Below, one piece after another: positions 13,922-24,850 of a DNA stretch of 38,287 nucleotides (the stretch's first letter is position 1; each line of letters opens with the position of its first letter). The DNA is taken from assembly GCA_945980035.1 (NCBI GenBank), contig CAMFQG010000003.1, positions 1 through 38,287 on the forward strand. Reading direction: 5' to 3'. Position numbers and translations under genes: made by a program. The notes below the pieces were generated by a model. It saw nothing but the letters and a program-made list of their open reading frames with translations, made no database searches and was not told the DNA's origin. The DNA comes from an uncultured Clostridia bacterium. Lineage in GTDB: Bacteria > Bacillota > Clostridia > Oscillospirales > Acutalibacteraceae.

Positions 13922-15439
13922 ATGAACAATCAAGAGGATAACTTTTCAAGGCTTTTTGACGAGGATTATTACCGTCAGCTGGAAAATGAAATAAAAAATC
14001 ACGGGCAGAGTGGTGCTCCTACACCGCCGATAAATGCAACAAAAAGTACAGAAACCTTTGTAAATAAGGACGAAAACACAGAATCTTCCGTAAATGTAAA
14101 AGTAAATACAAAAAAACGTCCCACACCTAAAAGCTCTGTTTATGATGAGATTTTCAGCAGTCACGAAAATAACCGTCACCACGATATTTATCAGACCTTT
14201 TCAATTCCAAAGATTTCTGAGGATATGGAAACACAAAGACCTAAGCAGAAAATTGATTTCAGCAAAGCAGAGGACTACGACGTTTTCAATGACGGCACAA
14301 AGAGAAAGAAAAGCCACAAAGGGTTGTTGATTACCCTGATTATAGTAGCAGTAATTTTGCTGTTAGCAGGCGGTGTGTTTTTATGCTATCAGCAGGGATA
14401 CCTTGATGCTGTTTTTCCAAAAGCCGATACTGCACAAGAGGAAACAACGGCTACTGTATCTACAGAGGCTCCTACAGAAAAGCCAACGGAAAATTTGCTT
14501 GACAACACTTATTTTATTACCCCTGAGCCTAAGGATAACAAGGCAAAGGGACACTTTGACAACAGCAGTTTTATATGGAATGACAAGGCGTTTGAGCTTT
14601 TCTACGGCGATGACACTCTTGCTAAAAATTACGCAAAGGGCATAAATTACTGTGCTGACAAGCTGGGTGATAACTTTACCGTCTATGATATGATTGTGCC
14701 TACTCACGTAGAAATGGGCTTGCCAAGTAGGTTAATTGAGGACGGCACGGTAAATTCTCTATCGCAGTCAAGAAATATCGGCACAGCCTACAAGAATATG
14801 AACGATAGTGTAATACCTGTAAACTGCTACAATTATCTTGCAAATCACTGTAATGAATATATTTACTACAACACCGACCACCACTGGTCAGGCTTAGGCT
14901 CCTATTACGCATATCAGGCATTTGCCGAAAAGCTGGGACTTCCTGCGCTTAATCTTAAAGATTGTGACGAAAACACAATCGAGGGATTTTACGGAACACT
15001 TGCAAACAATGTTTCCGCAGATTTACCTGCCGATACTGTTACTTTCTGGACTTTCCCATACGATACCTCAAACACAATTTATTACAACGGACCTAACAAA
15101 TCCGGCACCCCCTCAACTGTTTACTATATGAACGGCGTAGGCGGTCCAAATACCTACGGAGTATTTTTGTGGGGAGATCAGCCCCTTGAGGTTTTAAAAT
15201 CCCAAAGTCCAAAGGCAAAGGGTAAAATAGCTCTTGTAAAAGAGAGCTTCGGCAACGCATTTGCACCTTATTTAACATATAATTATGAGGAAGTACACGT
15301 TGTTGACTTTAGGTATTTTGACAGTAACCTAAAAGAATATTGTGAGAAAAATAAGATTGACACTGTCATATTTATGAACGGTGTTATGTCGGCAAATACA
15401 CCAATGCAGGTGGATAAAATTAAAGGACTGTTTAAGTAA
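13922..15439 (+). CDS. DHHW-family (AlgX/AlgJ-like SGNH) membrane-anchored protein
   Basis: Long hydrophilic N-terminus, one TM (GLLITLIIVAVILLLAGGVFLCY), T/E/P-rich linker, YYNTDHHWSGLGSYYAYQAFAEKLGLP and KESFGNAFAPYLTYNYEEVHVVDFRYF. Confidence 0.85.
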   Translation: MNNQEDNFSRLFDEDYYRQLENEIKNHGQSGAPTPPINATKSTETFVNKDENTESSVNVKVNTKKRPTPKSSVYDEIFSSHENNRHHDIYQTFSIPKISEDMETQRPKQKIDFSKAEDYDVFNDGTKRKKSHKGLLITLIIVAVILLLAGGVFLCYQQGYLDAVFPKADTAQEETTATVSTEAPTEKPTENLLDNTYFITPEPKDNKAKGHFDNSSFIWNDKAFELFYGDDTLAKNYAKGINYCADKLGDNFTVYDMIVPTHVEMGLPSRLIEDGTVNSLSQSRNIGTAYKNMNDSVIPVNCYNYLANHCNEYIYYNTDHHWSGLGSYYAYQAFAEKLGLPALNLKDCDENTIEGFYGTLANNVSADLPADTVTFWTFPYDTSNTIYYNGPNKSGTPSTVYYMNGVGGPNTYGVFLWGDQPLEVLKSQSPKAKGKIALVKESFGNAFAPYLTYNYEEVHVVDFRYFDSNLKEYCEKNKIDTVIFMNGVMSANTPMQVDKIKGLFK

Positions 15440-15711
15440 TGAAAAAATTTATTATAACTTTGTTAATTACAATTATTGCTTGCTTTTCCATATTTGCAGT
15501 TAGTGGGTTAAATATTAATGATGCTACCGCTATACAAAAGTACCTTGCAGGTTTTTCTGTAGAGAATTTTGACAAGAATTCTGCCGACTATAATAAAGAC
15601 GGCGAAATTAATATTCGTGACGTAACCGCTATCCAAAAGGAACTTGCAAAAGTTACTGACACTATACCAAAGGAAACTGAGGATATAGGGGAGATATTAA
15701 TGGGAAATTGA
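15439..15711 (+). CDS. Small secreted dockerin-like protein with a truncated first repeat
   Basis: Signal peptide MKKFIITLLITIIACFSIFAVSG, then LNINDATAIQKYLAGF and ADYNKDGEINIRDVTAIQKELAKV (complete type I dockerin-like loop). Start overlaps the upstream stop (taATG). Confidence 0.75.
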   Translation: MKKFIITLLITIIACFSIFAVSGLNINDATAIQKYLAGFSVENFDKNSADYNKDGEINIRDVTAIQKELAKVTDTIPKETEDIGEILMGN

Positions 15712-16974: not shown

Positions 16975-18507
16975 TTGATAAAAATTGACAGTAACAAAAA
17001 TTTAATTGTAACTGATGATGACCTTTTTATCGGATATACAGGGGATAACCTGAATGTGACAAAGGAAATTTTAATTGAAAAGGAAACCGATATAAGCTTG
17101 ATTTACAGAATGTATCTGAAGTTTGATGACGGCACCTGCAACTTCTTTTTGTTAGACAAAACAGAAAGTGACAACGGTACAAAATTAATTTGGAAAATAA
17201 CATCCGACCAGATTTATAAGGACGGAATTGTAAAGGTACAGATAAAAGCCTCTAATTCAAGCGGTGAGGTGTTCCATACAAACTCAATAAATATGCTTGT
17301 TCAGTCCTCTATTGAATTCTGCGACAGCTTTGCTGAAAAAAAGGTGTCGGAATATCTGCAACACGAGGAGCGATTAAACCAGATTGTACGAAAGGGGCAG
17401 GAAATATACGATAATTTATCACCCTTTGAGTTTGACTCCGAGCCAACAGAGAACAGCAACAAGTTGATTTCCAGCGGTGCGGTTTACAACTCACTTGCAA
17501 AAAAGGCTAACTTCAAAAACACCTACTATGATGTGGGAGGAACAGGTGGACTTACCTTTGCCTGTGACCCTGACACAATTTATAATGTATATTTTAGAGC
17601 TCCCTGCAACAATGTTCCTCAGGGTACAAGGGGCATTCTCTTTGCTACTGATGAAAATACGCAGATATTTATTGCAGACAACGGTAATATCTATCACAGA
17701 TATTATAACCTGACAGATGATATGTGGAGCGAATTTACTTCCGTTATCAGCCAAAAGGTAAATTCAGTAAACGGTGTATTTCCTGATAATTTAGGAAATG
17801 TGGATTTATTAGTTGAATGTGGCTATGGAACAGATTTAGCTGATTGCACCGACAAAAGTAAAATTTACTATTTTAACACAGGAATAGTTGGGTTAAGAGG
17901 CAGTACAGCCGATTTTGGCGGAGTAGGTATGTATGTAGGCTTTGTCAAGAAAGTAAATAACGGTTGGCTGTTTATTTCTACCGGAGAGGGTAACAAGAAA
18001 TCAAACTATAGAATTTTTGAAAACGGCGAAACAAAGTTTATCGGTTCATCATATGACTATAACAATTTAAGCAACAAGCCTGCGATTAACAACGTGGAAT
18101 TAACAGGCAATAAAACTTTATCGGATTTAGGTTTATACACCAAAGAGCAAGTTGATGAAATTATTGCTAACCAAAGTGTCAGCGGTTCAGGAACACTAAG
18201 CATCAACAGTTCTAACGGTCCCTCTAATATAATATCATCGGCAACCTACTATTATGTAAAGCGAGGGAAATTGGTAACATTATTCTGTAGCATAAAGTTT
18301 AATGCAGGTACCTGTAACTACGCAGACTTTAACGGTTTGCCTTTTAATTACAACAATAAAGTAGGTCAATTAAGAACATACGCAGCAACAAATAAGGGCG
18401 AAATGTTTAGAATAGCAGTCAGCTCAGGTATGTTATTTATTGCATCATCAACAGCAACACGTACACAGGATGAGGAACTGAATTTTTCAATTTCCTACTT
18501 AGTATAG
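16975..18507 (+). CDS. Phage tail-fibre/receptor-binding-like protein (solitary)
   Basis: aaaggaggtgag then TTG start. BppU-like N-terminus (MIKIDSNKNLIVTDDDLFIGYTGDN...), KKVSEYLQHEERLNQIV coiled segment, NSVNGVFPDNLGNVDL and YNNLSNKPAINNVELTGNKTLSDLGLYTKEQVDEII phrases typical of tail fibres. Confidence 0.75.
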   Translation: MIKIDSNKNLIVTDDDLFIGYTGDNLNVTKEILIEKETDISLIYRMYLKFDDGTCNFFLLDKTESDNGTKLIWKITSDQIYKDGIVKVQIKASNSSGEVFHTNSINMLVQSSIEFCDSFAEKKVSEYLQHEERLNQIVRKGQEIYDNLSPFEFDSEPTENSNKLISSGAVYNSLAKKANFKNTYYDVGGTGGLTFACDPDTIYNVYFRAPCNNVPQGTRGILFATDENTQIFIADNGNIYHRYYNLTDDMWSEFTSVISQKVNSVNGVFPDNLGNVDLLVECGYGTDLADCTDKSKIYYFNTGIVGLRGSTADFGGVGMYVGFVKKVNNGWLFISTGEGNKKSNYRIFENGETKFIGSSYDYNNLSNKPAINNVELTGNKTLSDLGLYTKEQVDEIIANQSVSGSGTLSINSSNGPSNIISSATYYYVKRGKLVTLFCSIKFNAGTCNYADFNGLPFNYNNKVGQLRTYAATNKGEMFRIAVSSGMLFIASSTATRTQDEELNFSISYLV

Positions 18508-18574: not shown

Positions 18575-18610
18575 AAAAACGTCTGATGCTGTCACGCATC
18601 AGACGTTTTT
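18575..18610. terminator. Intrinsic terminator between convergent tail-fibre-like gene and wzx
   Basis: aaaaacgtctgatgc / gcatcagacgttttt: perfect 15-bp stem, tgtcac loop, T-run. Confidence 0.9.
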
Positions 18611-18665: not shown

Positions 18666-20123
18666 CTAACTCGCATTGTCCTTTTTACGCTTTTTCTTTA
18701 AACTATTAATTATTTTTCCAATATCTTTATCTTTTGATATAAGAAAAATAAGAAGCGTAAGGGTTATATATATAAAGGCTCCGGAAAATACCTGTACTAC
18801 AAGAGTAATTATACTTTCGCCCATATACTTGCCGATTATAATTGTGGCAGCTGCCATGATAATACCAGCTATTGAAAACCCTATACTTGGCATTAAATAT
18901 TTCTTTAAATCCATTTTCTTTCTTACTGATACAGCCTGAACAAAGAAAACTGTAAATTCTGCCAAAATTGTACCGATTAACGCACCTTTTGCTCCAAATT
19001 TTGATATCAAGATTAAGTTTAAAGTCAGGTTAATAATCGCACCCAGAATAGTTGAAACAACATACGGTTTATCAAGTTGATTGGGGATAAGATATTGAGT
19101 TCTTATAATGTTTGCCCATGTCATAAAAATTAGTGTTACACTAAGTCCTGCAATCAAAGGAGCGGAACCGATAAATTCCTCACCAAAGTATGTTGGAGAT
19201 AAAATTTCGCTGACTCCTATAAGTCCGAATGCCATACCTATTGCAATTAATGAAAAATATTTAAAGGACTGTTGCATATAGTTAGAAATTTTTCCCTCCG
19301 CTTTGTTTGCCACCAAAGCAGAAATTCTTGGCATCATTACTGTACCGAATGCATTTATTATTCCCACAGGAATATTTATTATTTTTTCTGCATTTTCATA
19401 TAGTCCTAACTGCGTAACTGTTGACAATGAGCCAAGCATTATTTTGTCCATTACTTTATATATGCTATAAGCAATAACAGGAATAAATAATATCAGCATT
19501 GGTTTTATGTGTTTTTTCATCTCACTAAAGGTTGGTCTTACAAAATGAATATATTTCCTCACATTTAACCATAAATATATCTGACTGCAAACCGTACCCA
19601 AAGCCATAATCAACATATATAGCCATAAGTCATAAGCCTTTTTGACAAACAAAAATATACATACAACCGTGCATAGTTTTATTATCGTGTTCCTTGTTAC
19701 TGTTATTTTAAATTTTTCAAGTCCAAAGAATAACCAGTTAATATCCAATACATAGGATATAACAAACAGGATTGAAATAATAGCGACCGTTTTATCAAAA
19801 GAAGAAAAGAATATCACATAGAGCAAAAAGAACAATAACGCTAAAGCCGTCGTTGAAAACTGTATGGAATAAATATTCCAAAATGTTGAACTTAACTTAT
19901 CCTTGTCATTTCTGACTAATGCAACGCTTCTGTTTCCATGATTTGATACACCCAACATTCCGCATAATCCGAAATAATATGCAATCGAATGTACATAAGA
20001 ATATGTACCTATTCCCTCTGCTCCAAGCACACGGGATATGTAGGGGGCTGTAATTAACGGAAGAATGATAACAAGGATTTGATACAATAAGTTATATATT
20101 ATATTTTTTTTCAGACTTGTCAT
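18666..20123 (-). CDS. wzx: Wzx-type polysaccharide flippase (oligosaccharide flippase family)
   Basis: NIIYNLLYQILVIILPLITAPYISRVLGAEGIGTYSYVHSIAYYFGL N-terminus; about 12-14 hydrophobic segments. Confidence 0.93.
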   Translation of the reverse strand: MTSLKKNIIYNLLYQILVIILPLITAPYISRVLGAEGIGTYSYVHSIAYYFGLCGMLGVSNHGNRSVALVRNDKDKLSSTFWNIYSIQFSTTALALLFFLLYVIFFSSFDKTVAIISILFVISYVLDINWLFFGLEKFKITVTRNTIIKLCTVVCIFLFVKKAYDLWLYMLIMALGTVCSQIYLWLNVRKYIHFVRPTFSEMKKHIKPMLILFIPVIAYSIYKVMDKIMLGSLSTVTQLGLYENAEKIINIPVGIINAFGTVMMPRISALVANKAEGKISNYMQQSFKYFSLIAIGMAFGLIGVSEILSPTYFGEEFIGSAPLIAGLSVTLIFMTWANIIRTQYLIPNQLDKPYVVSTILGAIINLTLNLILISKFGAKGALIGTILAEFTVFFVQAVSVRKKMDLKKYLMPSIGFSIAGIIMAAATIIIGKYMGESIITLVVQVFSGAFIYITLTLLIFLISKDKDIGKIINSLKKKRKKDNAS

Positions 20124-20206: not shown

Positions 20207-20404
20207 TTAATTTTTTGCCTTTATAGGACAAACCTTGATACACTGCCGACAACGAATACACTTACTTTCGTCAATCTTTGGATACTGAAATCCCTCTTCG
20301 TCATCAACCATACTTATCGCCTTTTTGGGGCAAATAGTATAACAAGCCGTACATCCGCAACATTCTTCTTTTTTACTATACAAAACAGGAATATTTTTTT
20401 CCAT
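20207..20404 (-). CDS. Small 2x[4Fe-4S] ferredoxin-type protein
   Basis: CCGCTACYTICPKKAI and CIRCRQCIKVCPIKA: two CxxCxxCxxxCP motifs in 65 aa. Confidence 0.88.
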   Translation of the reverse strand: MEKNIPVLYSKKEECCGCTACYTICPKKAISMVDDEEGFQYPKIDESKCIRCRQCIKVCPIKAKN

Positions 20405-20438
20405 TATTCATACCTCTGATTTTTTAAATATCATAAAA

Positions 20439-21422
20439 TTACGCAAATCGTCTTGCAAGTTTTTCCAAATGCAGTATTTTGAGCATCTGTTTAGCCCTGT
20501 ACTTGATGCTTTTTTTGATGGGAATTTTTTTGTATTTCCCCCAAAATTCTTGGGTGCTTAAACTGTTAAAATCCTCAAAGAACTCCCTGCGACCTGCTGC
20601 CTTGTTAGTTGCATACACAATGGAGGGGTTAAAAGCAACCCATTTTTCGTAATCGGTTTCAAGGGTCAAAAATGAGTTGGAAACAGAATTTATCAGGTTT
20701 TGCCCCTTGTCGGTTCTCACGATAAACAATGACGTTCCTTTATCATCTGCCCATTGGGGCTTGTCCTTTTCAACTTTCCAAGCGTCGCCCATAGTTATAT
20801 CGGACAGGTAATTTTTACCCTTAAACGGGCATTGATAACAGGAAGGTCGTATGTTTTTATCACTTAAAAAACCTCTCATATAGGGGTCTAATTCGTGACT
20901 GACAGATTTTGTTTTGCCGTTTTTGTATGCTATATGAAAGGAAAAATCGTGCCAGCCGTGATTTTTATGCCTGAAAGAAACACCTGCTATTTCTCCGTTA
21001 TTGCCTAGATACTCCAAATATGATTTCCAAATTTTTGGAGAAGGCACACCGTGACAGATGAAATCCACGGTTATAAGTTGTTCAGTTGAAATATTAATTT
21101 TCTCAAGCAGAGTTTTTAATCCGTAAACCTGACAGGGTGTACCGGAAAACAAAACCGTATGTTTTTCCTTTAAATCATTGGCGACCATAGAGTAAACATT
21201 GTTCATGTTACTTTGAACGTATTTTGAACAAAGGAGTTTTTTTAACTGTTTTTTATCCGTTACCCTGATGTGATTGACTTCAAAATTCTCGTTAAATCCA
21301 GCGCCGTATATTACACCGGACTGATTTAATACGCTGATTGCCAGCTCGTAAAAAAGTCCTCCTGATGAACTTTTCTTTCTGATATTATCATCGGAGTTGT
21401 ATCCTAAATATGTTTTTTTCAT
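20439..21422 (-). CDS. Coenzyme F420 hydrogenase/dehydrogenase beta subunit-like (FrhB-type) protein lacking the N-terminal ferredoxin domain
   Basis: YLGYNSDDNIRKKSSSGGLFYELA, VLFSGTPCQVYGLKTLL, DFICHGVPSPKIWKSYLEYL, CYQCPFKGKNYLSDITMGDAW. ATG at 21422 overlaps the acyltransferase stop. Confidence 0.87.
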   Translation of the reverse strand: MKKTYLGYNSDDNIRKKSSSGGLFYELAISVLNQSGVIYGAGFNENFEVNHIRVTDKKQLKKLLCSKYVQSNMNNVYSMVANDLKEKHTVLFSGTPCQVYGLKTLLEKINISTEQLITVDFICHGVPSPKIWKSYLEYLGNNGEIAGVSFRHKNHGWHDFSFHIAYKNGKTKSVSHELDPYMRGFLSDKNIRPSCYQCPFKGKNYLSDITMGDAWKVEKDKPQWADDKGTSLFIVRTDKGQNLINSVSNSFLTLETDYEKWVAFNPSIVYATNKAAGRREFFEDFNSLSTQEFWGKYKKIPIKKSIKYRAKQMLKILHLEKLARRFA

Positions 21423-22483
21423 TATTGATTCCTTTTTGTAATTAATCTGCCGCCACAAATAAACGAATAAAATTTAGGAGCGAATTTTTTTAACAATAGA
21501 CTTATTGCAAAACAAGCCGTAAATGATACTACTCCTGTTGCAAAGAAAACTAATGTTATTCCGAAATTACTCTTTCCCAATAATGCGATAAATATTTTTT
21601 TGAAGATAATTACAAAATAAATATGGGCACAAAATGAGAAAAATGAAAAATTGAGTTTTTCGTTTAAATGCCGTTTGTTTATATTCGAAAACAAATCCAT
21701 TGTAATCCACAAAAGAAGGGGTGATATCATCCTGTATAAGTAGTAGATTGTGCTTTGTTCTTCTATATCGAACAATATTATTAACGCCACAAAAACCAAC
21801 AGTAATATCAAACTGATAACCGAAAGTATTTTTGACGGCTCTTTGTATTCTTTGCTTTTGTAATATCCAAATCGGGCTGCGATAATACAAACAGGAAGCC
21901 AGAATATTGCATATGAATAGTTGATATTGAAAAAAGCAAGAAACAAAGTTATTGCCAAAAGTAATAAACCAAAGAGTATCTTGTTGAGTTTTTTAACCAT
22001 CAAATAAATAACAGGGGATATAAGTATCAGCACAAACAATGACCGCAAAAACCAGATAGGGGAATTATACTTTGCGAATAATAAGGATCGCATAATTTCC
22101 AATGGGCTAAAGGAAACTGTTTCTGCCTGCACAAGGTTACTCAACATAGGAATGTTGGTAAGGGTTGCATAGAAAATCCAGCCGAATATTCCCCAAACTA
22201 AAAAGGGCAACAAAACTGATTTTGTTTTTTTCTTTATTAAAGAACCGTAATTTTTGATTTCATATCCTGAAAACAGCAAAAACATTGACATCATAAAGAA
22301 CAGGGGTACTGCTGTATCAGCGATAATTAGTATCGACTTTTGGATAACATAATTAATTGAGTAAAATGAAGTTTTTGTGTTTAGAGAACCTAAACAGGAG
22401 GAGTGAATCAGCACTATAAAAAATGCCAATATAAAATTCATATTACTTATTTTATTTGATACTGTTTTCTGTATTTGTTTCAT
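21422..22483 (-). CDS. Acyltransferase family 3 membrane protein
   Basis: NFILAFFIVLIHSSCLG, DTAVPLFFMMSMFLLFSGYE, SPIWFLRSLFVLILISPVIY; about 10 TM segments. Confidence 0.85.
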   Translation of the reverse strand: MKQIQKTVSNKISNMNFILAFFIVLIHSSCLGSLNTKTSFYSINYVIQKSILIIADTAVPLFFMMSMFLLFSGYEIKNYGSLIKKKTKSVLLPFLVWGIFGWIFYATLTNIPMLSNLVQAETVSFSPLEIMRSLLFAKYNSPIWFLRSLFVLILISPVIYLMVKKLNKILFGLLLLAITLFLAFFNINYSYAIFWLPVCIIAARFGYYKSKEYKEPSKILSVISLILLLVFVALIILFDIEEQSTIYYLYRMISPLLLWITMDLFSNINKRHLNEKLNFSFFSFCAHIYFVIIFKKIFIALLGKSNFGITLVFFATGVVSFTACFAISLLLKKFAPKFYSFICGGRLITKRNQ

Positions 22484-22551: not shown

Positions 22552-23706
22552 TTAGATATCCGAAGTTAATGCACCCTCAAGGAATTCTATTGAATCTTTC
22601 CTCAATTTTTGAAGATTTTCCTCAACGGTTTTGTAATCAATTTTTTTATCAATGTATTGTTGTAATTTTTCCACTGAATACAGGCGGTCATCAAGATTTA
22701 AGGCTTTTAACAAGTCGTAAATTCTGGAGTTTTTCGAAGCGGTATGGCTTTTTTTATCTCTTTCGTAAACAACAAAGTCTTTGTTGAAAATAATTGAAAA
22801 AACCGTACCGTGAAAAGAATCTGTGAACACAGCCTCTGCATTGTTAATCAACGACAAAAATTCAACAGGGCCCACATTTTCCTGTTTGATTCCTTTGCCT
22901 TTACCGTCGCCGTGCACATAGCATTGATTTGCATAGGGAATATAGTATAAATCCAAGTTGTTATTTTTGCAGTAATCGTCAATTTCTTCCCTGTATTTTC
23001 TGTTTTCGGAAAAGAAATAACACAGCACATATTTTCTTTTTTTCTCAACAGGTCGACATAATTTCTGCCATTCCGTCTTATCTAAAATCAATGTAGGGTC
23101 AAGAACCGTTTTTACATTTTCTACTCCCTTTTGGGCAAGTAGTTTCCGGGCTGTGTTTTCTCTGACGGAAACAGAATCATACCTTTTAATCAAAGGAATC
23201 ATAACTTCCGATTCGTGGGGGGAAAGTACAGAGCGACCTATACTTGCGGCATAGGCGATTTTTTTATGGTTGTCGTCTATCATTGACAGCAAAAATCCCT
23301 CTCTTGCCGCATTTGGATTCCATATCTGGTCTGAACCGCTTATGTATGCAAAATATTTATCCTGGCTTTTTACCAAGGTGTTATCATCAAAAGGTCCGTT
23401 TGTGGAAATATACTCTTTTCTGAATTTATCAAACAAAACTGCTCTGTTGACAAAAATATTATTTACCTTACCGTTAAAAATTTTTGCCTGAGTTTTTTCT
23501 GTGACTTTTTTCAGAATATCCTTAACACCATATTGTTTCAGTTGCTCTTTTGCGGAGGGATAAACAGGATTTTTACCGTTTACGTAATACAAAACATCTG
23601 CGTTATAGCCAAGCTCCTTAACCTTTTTATGCAGGGCAAATGCCTGTAAAACTCCGCCGTAATTATTGTTGTTATTGAATATTGTTAATATTGCAACATT
23701 TTTCAT
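22552..23706 (-). CDS. Polysaccharide pyruvyl transferase family protein (copy 2)
   Basis: MKNVAILTIFNNNNNYGGVLQAFALHKKVKELG, ISGSDQIWNPN, AVFTDSFHGTVFSIIFNKDF. Confidence 0.9.
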   Translation of the reverse strand: MKNVAILTIFNNNNNYGGVLQAFALHKKVKELGYNADVLYYVNGKNPVYPSAKEQLKQYGVKDILKKVTEKTQAKIFNGKVNNIFVNRAVLFDKFRKEYISTNGPFDDNTLVKSQDKYFAYISGSDQIWNPNAAREGFLLSMIDDNHKKIAYAASIGRSVLSPHESEVMIPLIKRYDSVSVRENTARKLLAQKGVENVKTVLDPTLILDKTEWQKLCRPVEKKRKYVLCYFFSENRKYREEIDDYCKNNNLDLYYIPYANQCYVHGDGKGKGIKQENVGPVEFLSLINNAEAVFTDSFHGTVFSIIFNKDFVVYERDKKSHTASKNSRIYDLLKALNLDDRLYSVEKLQQYIDKKIDYKTVEENLQKLRKDSIEFLEGALTSDI

Positions 23707-23707
23707 T

Positions 23708-24850
23708 TCAGTTCGCCTTATGTGTCATAAATGTATTTATATAGTCCATTGCTTTACTGCGCATCTGCGCAATTTTCTCGTTAACCGAAGCATAGTCGGC
23801 AGGAATATTGAAATCATCCTTATTCAGCTTTGCTCCCAAAACGTAGTGATTTTCAAGTCCTAACTGCTTTAGCAGTGCAGCGGATCTGTCGTCGTCAGGG
23901 TCAATTTCAATATTATGCTTAAAATTGCAGAAGTTCTTATTAAATAAAGCAGAAAACAGAGTTCCGTGGAAAGAATCGGTTACAACAGCGGTTGCCTCGT
24001 TTATCATCTTTAAGAAACCGTAAGGGCCTGATTGCTCATAAAGCTCAAATCCGTATTGCTGTAGATTATTTATCGCATATCCTTTTCTGTCGATTACTAA
24101 TACCTTTAAGCCGAGCTCCTTTGCAACATCTCTCAGCCTTTCGTTTAATTCTCTGTTGCTGTGAGAGAACGCATAGTAGAAGATAAATTTATCCTTGATG
24201 CCTGTTGGCTGAATGTTAAGCGTTTCAAGCCACTGTTCCGGGGTAAAAAGCATTGTGGGGTCTGCAATAATCGGTATATCCTTGCCTGTTAAATCCCCTA
24301 ACCATTTTTTGCCGTTTGGCTCTCTTACTGACAGGTAGTCGAATTTTAACAGCAAGTCCCTGTAAATTTCAGGGTTCTGTGCAAATTTATTCAGGTTAAC
24401 TGCACCCAAGCTTGGTGAATAAGCAACCTTTAGTCCCTTGTCTGCAAAGTTTAAAAAGTAAGCAAGGTCTGTATCACGGCATCTTACGTTCCACACCTGA
24501 TCACCGCCGGCAATTAAAATATCGTATTTGCCGTTTAGCTCAAAAAGCTGACGGTTTCTCTTGTAGTATTTCTTTGTAAGATTAAAGTTTTTCGCAGAAA
24601 ACTCCGCGTAATCTTTCTTCATTTTTTTGATTGTACCCCAATGGGGGAGAGTTCTGATATTGGATTTTAATATTCTGGGACGCAGTCTTGTATCCCAAAG
24701 TGAATACATCTGCCTTTGTCCTCTGCTTGAAAAATTTATTATTTCTGCTTTGCAGTCATAATTTTTTTCAAGAACTGTTTGCAGTGCATATGCCTGTAGC
24801 ATTGAACCGCAGTTATCCGGATTATGAAATGTTACAATTCCTATTTTCAT
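23708..24850 (-). CDS. Polysaccharide pyruvyl transferase family protein (copy 1)
   Basis: MKIGIVTFHNPDNCGSMLQAYALQTVLEKNY, IAGGDQVWNVRCRD, AVVTDSFHGTLFSALFNKNF. Confidence 0.9.
   Translation of the reverse strand: MKIGIVTFHNPDNCGSMLQAYALQTVLEKNYDCKAEIINFSSRGQRQMYSLWDTRLRPRILKSNIRTLPHWGTIKKMKKDYAEFSAKNFNLTKKYYKRNRQLFELNGKYDILIAGGDQVWNVRCRDTDLAYFLNFADKGLKVAYSPSLGAVNLNKFAQNPEIYRDLLLKFDYLSVREPNGKKWLGDLTGKDIPIIADPTMLFTPEQWLETLNIQPTGIKDKFIFYYAFSHSNRELNERLRDVAKELGLKVLVIDRKGYAINNLQQYGFELYEQSGPYGFLKMINEATAVVTDSFHGTLFSALFNKNFCNFKHNIEIDPDDDRSAALLKQLGLENHYVLGAKLNKDDFNIPADYASVNEKIAQMRSKAMDYINTFMTHKAN

What the first reader, a model, noticed from the sequence alone, without database searches (positions are those of the whole stretch)
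20207..21422. Split, order-reversed FrhB-like protein and ferredoxin inside an EPS operon
Seen: the FrhB-type catalytic protein begins directly at YLGYNSDDNIRKKSSSGG with no N-terminal [4Fe-4S] domain, and a separate 65-aa 2x[4Fe-4S] ferredoxin gene lies downstream (20404-20207, minus). Known: many EPS-locus FrhB-like proteins carry a ferredoxin domain at the N-terminus of one polypeptide. Inference: a two-component version in which a dedicated ferredoxin feeds a flavin-type redox enzyme acting on a sugar or lipid-linked intermediate. Its chemistry in polysaccharide synthesis is, to my knowledge, poorly characterised.
Basis: partly seen in the sequence, partly recalled or inferred. Interest (0 to 1): 0.62.

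Follow-up and report, generated by a model that had tools for sequence, protein, structure and literature searches.

The report
Split ferredoxin–flavoenzyme pair in polysaccharide operon
A gut-type anaerobic bacterium carries, as two neighbouring genes, an iron-sulfur electron donor and a probable flavin enzyme that are normally one protein; this enzyme nearly always sits beside, or is fused to, a pyruvate-attaching enzyme, which suggests that the two together put ether-linked lactic acid on surface sugars, a decoration whose making is, to my knowledge, unexplained.

Summary
A 327-aa FrhB-family protein (21422-20439, minus) without its usual N-terminal ferredoxin is followed 34 nt later by a 65-aa 2x[4Fe-4S] ferredoxin gene (20404-20207), inside an EPS operon. 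It is not an assembly error. Most relatives are fused (136 of 151 distinct FrhB domains), but the split recurs independently. A separate ferredoxin gene was found for nine unfused FrhBs, including the closed Ruminococcus albus 7 plasmid pRUMAL02, which has the same FrhB-then-ferredoxin order. The window's ferredoxin is 83% identical to another stand-alone one whose FrhB partner is only 31% identical, so the two genes have separate histories.

The stronger finding is the partner. In 45 of 50 loci with enough flank, FrhB lies within 6 kb of, or is fused to, a polysaccharide pyruvyl transferase (21 fusions in all, in both domain orders). I propose a MurA/MurB-like pair: the transferase makes an enolpyruvyl ether and the ferredoxin-fed flavoenzyme reduces it to a lactyl ether. 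Published Klebsiella data fit: the three capsule types with O-lactyl groups (K22, K37, K66) carry "pyruvyl transferases" but no pyruvate. The chemistry is inferred, not shown. The split itself is a variant of a known kind.

The parts
20439..21422 (-). FrhB-family oxidoreductase without N-terminal ferredoxin domain (327 aa); C97, C123, C195, C198 proposed ligands of one [4Fe-4S] cluster, probable FAD site
   Evidence: Pfam PF04422/PF04432; four Cys at 99-100% in 151 relatives; AlphaFold model pLDDT 80.8 matches Frh, Fsr and HCAR chains
20207..20404 (-). stand-alone 2x[4Fe-4S] ferredoxin (65 aa), proposed electron donor of the FrhB protein
   Evidence: Fer4/Fer4_7; 83% identical to stand-alone ferredoxin of G121; nearest relatives all stand-alone
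22552..23706 (-). polysaccharide pyruvyl transferase family protein 1, proposed enolpyruvyl/pyruvyl transferase partner
   Evidence: PF04230 E 1e-34
23708..24850 (-). polysaccharide pyruvyl transferase family protein 2
   Evidence: PF04230 E 9e-29
21422..22483 (-). Acyl_transf_3 membrane acyltransferase between PyrT1 and FrhB; its stop overlaps the FrhB start
   Evidence: PF01757 E 3.5e-23
18666..20123 (-). Wzx-type flippase, last gene of the operon
   Evidence: PF01943 E 2.3e-28
18575..18610 (-). intrinsic-terminator-like hairpin after Wzx, probable operon end
   Evidence: 15-bp stem plus T tail; consensus match only

Best explanation
The two genes are a split form of the ferredoxin-FrhB oxidoreductase found in many EPS loci. 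Reduced ferredoxin (for instance from pyruvate:ferredoxin oxidoreductase) passes electrons to the [4Fe-4S] cluster and flavin of the FrhB-like protein. That protein works in sequence with the neighbouring pyruvyl transferases: the transferase puts an enolpyruvyl group from PEP on a sugar hydroxyl, and the flavoenzyme reduces its C=CH2 to give an ether-linked lactate (O-1-carboxyethyl sugar), as MurA and MurB do for muramic acid, before the repeat unit is flipped out. Shown here: the split, its recurrence, the conserved Fe-S cysteines and fold, and the fusion and linkage to pyruvyl transferases. Inferred: flavin content, ferredoxin-FrhB electron transfer, the enolpyruvyl intermediate and the lactyl product.
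For: Linkage: of 50 distinct FrhBs with at least 4 kb flank on both sides, 45 have a PF04230 gene fused or within 6 kb on the same strand; 21 of 151 are single polypeptides, 13 PyrT-FrhB and 8 FrhB-PyrT. In the genus sample 23/23 FrhB-bearing genomes have PF04230 against 19/37 others (Fisher p 1.9e-5). Split copies keep the link: R. albus 7 PyrT-Wzx-FrhB-Fd, G748 PyrT-Wzx-Fd-FrhB and G820 PyrT-FrhB-Wzx-Fd. Chemistry precedent: BciB, annotated frhB, is an FAD/Fe-S protein that takes electrons from reduced ferredoxin and reduces a vinyl group (PMC4836224). Product correlation: among 79 Klebsiella K types O-lactyl groups occur only in K22, K37 and K66 (PMC6856556), and pyruvyl transferase genes without pyruvylation were reported only in K8, K22, K37 and K66 (PMC4616057; p 2.6e-4). 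That paper also lists nitroreductase (n=2) and coenzyme F420 hydrogenase (n=1) among the cps genes. F420 ligase is absent and pyruvate:ferredoxin oxidoreductase present in the host.
Against: No structure is known for this organism's EPS. Which Klebsiella types hold the F420-hydrogenase and nitroreductase genes is not stated in the main text and could not be checked. Many pyruvyl transferases lack an FrhB neighbour, and the FrhB-linked ones fall into two sequence types ('SFHG' and 'ARTH'), so no sequence mark of an enolpyruvyl product was found. Five of the 50 loci, including split pairs L074 and L067, show no PF04230 gene nearby. The window has two PyrTs for one FrhB.
Confidence: 0.48

Rival explanations
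1. The ferredoxin-FrhB pair does a redox step on another part of the glycan (for example oxidation or deoxygenation of a sugar ring, or reduction of a keto sugar or lipid-linked sugar), and the link to pyruvyl transferases reflects shared life in acidic EPS loci.
For: FrhB-superfamily enzymes act on very different substrates (F420, sulfite reductase systems, chlorophyll derivatives). Five of 50 well-flanked loci lack a nearby PF04230 gene.
Against: Covalent PyrT fusions in both domain orders and 23/23 genome co-occurrence are hard to explain by shared neighbourhood alone.
Confidence: 0.27
2. FrhB modifies the pyruvyl group differently, for example by reductive opening of a pyruvate ketal, or by making another reduced ether-linked acid such as a nononic or dihydroxypentanoic acid ether.
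For: Ether-linked 2,4-dihydroxypentanoic acids occur in Providencia O-antigens (PMC10609480). Two PyrTs accompany one FrhB here.
Against: Reductive ketal opening by flavin hydride has no precedent known to me; reduction of a C=CH2 group has one in this superfamily (BciB).
Confidence: 0.15
3. The split is a local accident: a decayed FrhB that lost its ferredoxin domain, with an unrelated ferredoxin picked up nearby.
For: The nearest FrhB relatives are fused, and ferredoxin and FrhB have different relatives. A G192 locus has the ferredoxin without any FrhB in the genome.
Against: All four Fe-S cysteines and the SxSGG, GxPC and DITxGDxW motifs are intact. Splits recur in several families of Clostridia and on a closed plasmid with the same order. 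A six-member split lineage with SH-aLRT 95 persists.
Confidence: 0.1

Closest known systems
Fused EPS-locus ferredoxin-FrhB proteins ('Coenzyme F420 hydrogenase/dehydrogenase, beta subunit C-terminal domain' proteins)
   Same: Same FrhB domain, same cysteines, same PyrT/Wzx neighbourhood
   Different: One polypeptide with the ferredoxin at the N-terminus; here two genes, ferredoxin second
Ruminococcus albus 7 pRUMAL02 FrhB (WP_013483814) plus 4Fe-4S protein (WP_013483813)
   Same: Split, FrhB first, ferredoxin directly downstream, PyrT and Wzx upstream
   Different: FrhB of the SRSGG split lineage; ferredoxin is 166 aa with an N-terminal extension and an insert
BciB, ferredoxin-dependent 8-vinyl reductase
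   Same: FrhB family, FAD plus Fe-S, ferredoxin as donor, reduces a vinyl group (PMC4836224)
   Different: Acts on chlorophyll precursors; no EPS link
HCAR (5DQR), FrhB of F420-reducing hydrogenase, F420-dependent sulfite reductase
   Same: Same fold by Foldseek, E 1e-8 to 1e-12
   Different: 11-17% identity; F420 or chlorophyll substrates; the host genome has no F420 ligase
MurA/MurB
   Same: Proposed two-step logic: enolpyruvyl transfer from PEP, then flavin-dependent reduction to a lactyl ether
   Different: Different protein families; the likeness is in the proposed chemistry only

Membership tests
FrhB superfamily (PF04422/PF04432) | N- and C-terminal domains over the Pfam cut-offs | tested here: met
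   27.0 and 91.3 bits against cut-offs 22 and 23.3
FrhB superfamily (PF04422/PF04432) | four cysteines for a [4Fe-4S] cluster | tested here: met
   C97, C123, C195, C198 at 99-100% in 151 sequences; cluster itself not shown
FrhB superfamily (PF04422/PF04432) | bound FAD | not testable with these tools
   Fold matches FAD-containing relatives but no cofactor modelled
F420-dependent enzymes (FrhB, FpoF) | host makes F420; equivalog model scores | tested here: not met
   No PF01996 match in the 94.5%-complete genome; FpoF/FrhB equivalog scores about 20 against cut-offs 331-475
Fused EPS ferredoxin-FrhB architecture | ferredoxin domain at the N-terminus of the same chain | tested here: not met
   Separate downstream gene
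PyrT-FrhB lactyl-ether pathway (proposed) | FrhB linked to a polysaccharide pyruvyl transferase | tested here: met
   Two PF04230 genes just upstream; 45/50 relatives
PyrT-FrhB lactyl-ether pathway (proposed) | EPS carries O-(1-carboxyethyl) sugars | not testable with these tools
   No structure for this organism; only the Klebsiella correlation
2x[4Fe-4S] bacterial-type ferredoxin | two CxxCxxCxxxCP motifs in about 55-65 aa | tested here: met
   Sequence; Fer4_7 5e-11

The most novel reading that the evidence does not exclude
The FrhB-pyruvyl transferase module, fused or split, is a widespread second MurA/MurB-like route, unrelated in sequence, that makes ether-linked lactate (O-1-carboxyethyl) sugars in bacterial exopolysaccharides and capsules. 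In some lineages the ferredoxin feeding it has become a separate, exchangeable subunit.
Probability: 0.42. Interest if true: 0.75.

Novelty: new variant of a known kind. Interest (0 to 1): 0.55.

Why it matters
Lactyl-ether sugars have been reported from capsules, O-antigens and EPS since the 1970s, but I know of no assigned pathway for them outside peptidoglycan. If the FrhB-pyruvyl transferase pair makes them, many 'coenzyme F420 hydrogenase' and 'pyruvyl transferase' annotations in polysaccharide loci of organisms without F420 would get a function, and product prediction from sequence would change (lactyl ether instead of pyruvate ketal). The split pair is the handiest form for testing, because donor and reductase can be deleted or purified separately.

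Tried and rejected
(1) Frameshift or assembly error: no ferredoxin remnant in any minus-strand frame upstream, and the same order in a closed isolate plasmid. (2) F420 as cofactor: no F420 ligase in the genome. (3) A sequence mark separating FrhB-linked pyruvyl transferases: the expected loss of the RxH motif does not hold, since both 'SFHG' and 'ARTH' types occur beside FrhB. (5) Viral contigs: no relatives of either protein. (6) Papers: no held paper names FrhB-like proteins as lactyl-ether enzymes; the Butyrivibrio EPS papers are not held. (7) Single-sequence PDB search of FrhB and PyrT: no relevant hit; the profile and fold searches were needed.

Full report
Observation. On the minus strand of the window the FrhB-like gene runs 21422-20439 and the ferredoxin gene 20404-20207. 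FrhB begins at its own ATG, which overlaps the stop of an Acyl_transf_3 gene; a purine-rich ribosome-binding site precedes each start. Pfam assigns PF04422 plus PF04432 to the first protein and 4Fe-4S dicluster families to the second. No ferredoxin remnant lies upstream in any minus-strand frame. The genome has no second PF04432 gene. The order along the transcript is GT4, Core-2/I-branching-like, PyrT2, PyrT1, acyltransferase, FrhB, Fd, Wzx, followed by a terminator-like hairpin.

Is the split real and conserved? I collected 151 distinct FrhB domains from related genomes, plasmids and fetched loci. 136 carry the ferredoxin domain on the same chain, 12 do not, and 3 are cut by a contig edge. 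For nine of the 12 a separate EPS-type ferredoxin gene was found in the same locus. Order FrhB then Fd: window, G219 (L074), R. albus 7 plasmid pRUMAL02 (L179); with one gene between, G820 (L242); further apart, G121 (L068). Order Fd then FrhB: G748 (L240), G207 (L073), G230 (L072), G024 (L067). The remaining three (L069, L213 and L244) had none seen. On a maximum-likelihood tree of the FrhB domains, unfused rows need 7 changes, of which supported branches force at least 5. Six of them, including R. albus, form one lineage (SH-aLRT 95), while the window's FrhB and L074 stand apart among fused relatives (quick tree, SH-aLRT only).

Mosaic history. The window's ferredoxin is 83% identical to the stand-alone ferredoxin of G121, whose unfused FrhB is only 31% identical to the window's. 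On the short ferredoxin alignment its four nearest rows are all stand-alone proteins (weakly resolved). The ferredoxin therefore looks like an exchangeable subunit. One genome (G192) carries such a ferredoxin after Wzx without any detectable FrhB, so exclusive service to FrhB is not proven.

What the protein is. C97, C123, C195 and C198, together with the SxSGG, GxPCQ and DITxGDxW motifs, are nearly invariant in fused and split forms. The AlphaFold model (pLDDT 80.8, eight sequences) matches F420-reducing hydrogenase FrhB chains, F420-dependent sulfite reductase and 7-hydroxymethyl chlorophyll a reductase, and the fused homologue L007 matches the same set including the ferredoxin-bearing 8rja and 8riu chains. 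The host lacks F420 ligase and has pyruvate:ferredoxin oxidoreductase, so a ferredoxin-driven, F420-independent enzyme is the likeliest reading.

The partner. In loci with enough flank FrhB is linked to a polysaccharide pyruvyl transferase in 45 of 50 cases. In 21 of 151 the two are one polypeptide, in both domain orders (an example by Pfam is the 747-aa Fd-FrhB-PyrT of Pseudobutyrivibrio sp. 49). A frequent gene order is PyrT, Wzx, FrhB. In the genus sample every genome with FrhB has PF04230 (23/23 against 19/37). The same pair is seen in Bacteroidota (B. finegoldii).

Mechanism. Pyruvyl transferases use PEP. MurA also transfers from PEP, giving an enolpyruvyl ether (PMC6801904), and MurB reduces it with flavin (own knowledge). 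BciB shows that an FrhB-family protein can reduce a vinyl group with electrons from ferredoxin (PMC4836224). Put together: PyrT makes an enolpyruvyl ether and Fd-FrhB reduces it to a lactyl ether. Independent support comes from Klebsiella. O-lactyl substituents occur only in K22, K37 and K66 of the tabulated types (PMC6856556 Table 1; K22 also by the Parolis 1988 title cited in PMC3857182). These three are among the four types reported to hold pyruvyl transferase genes without pyruvylation (K8, K22, K37, K66; PMC4616057), and K8 is listed with pyruvylated galactose in the other table. The same paper counts two nitroreductases and one coenzyme F420 hydrogenase among all cps genes. I suspect these are the reductases of K22/K37 and K66, but their assignment could not be checked here.

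From memory, not verified: the EPS of Butyrivibrio fibrisolvens strain 49 was reported to hold 4-O-(1-carboxyethyl)-D-galactose and -L-rhamnose. The genome named Pseudobutyrivibrio sp. 49 has two PyrT-FrhB modules, but I could not confirm that the strains are the same.

Verdict. The split is confirmed, recurrent and interesting as a variant. The biochemical proposal is the valuable part and rests on linkage, fusion, precedent and one published correlation; no step of the chemistry is shown.

Noticed in passing
window 15439-15711 (+): A 90-aa secreted-type protein consisting of a dockerin type I domain (Pfam E 2.5e-7), directly after a DHHW protein (13922-15439); suggests a cellulosome-type organism.
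   Followed up: partly
window 16975-18507 (+): 510-aa protein with no Pfam match, convergent with the EPS operon end; by eye it resembles phage baseplate/tail-fibre proteins.
   Followed up: partly
L112:9620-9826 (G192): EPS-type stand-alone ferredoxin (72% identical to the window's) as last gene after Wzx, in a genome with no FrhB match; its partner is unknown.
   Followed up: partly
L074:7211-7408 (G219): Split-pair ferredoxin whose second cluster motif has lost its fourth cysteine (CIRCLKCLKAAPC), next to an unfused FrhB with no pyruvyl transferase nearby.
   Followed up: partly
L068:1560-6825 (G121): One EPS operon with an unfused FrhB, a fused Fd-FrhB, two PyrTs and a stand-alone ferredoxin, so one ferredoxin may serve two reductases.
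   Followed up: no
L179:5188-6431 (R. albus 7 pRUMAL02): The PyrT gene upstream of the split FrhB-Fd pair is annotated as two ORFs (broken) in the reference plasmid.
   Followed up: no
L248:8359-9320 and L243:8535-9700: FrhB genes broken into fragments in G606 and G515, next to intact PyrTs in G606.
   Followed up: no
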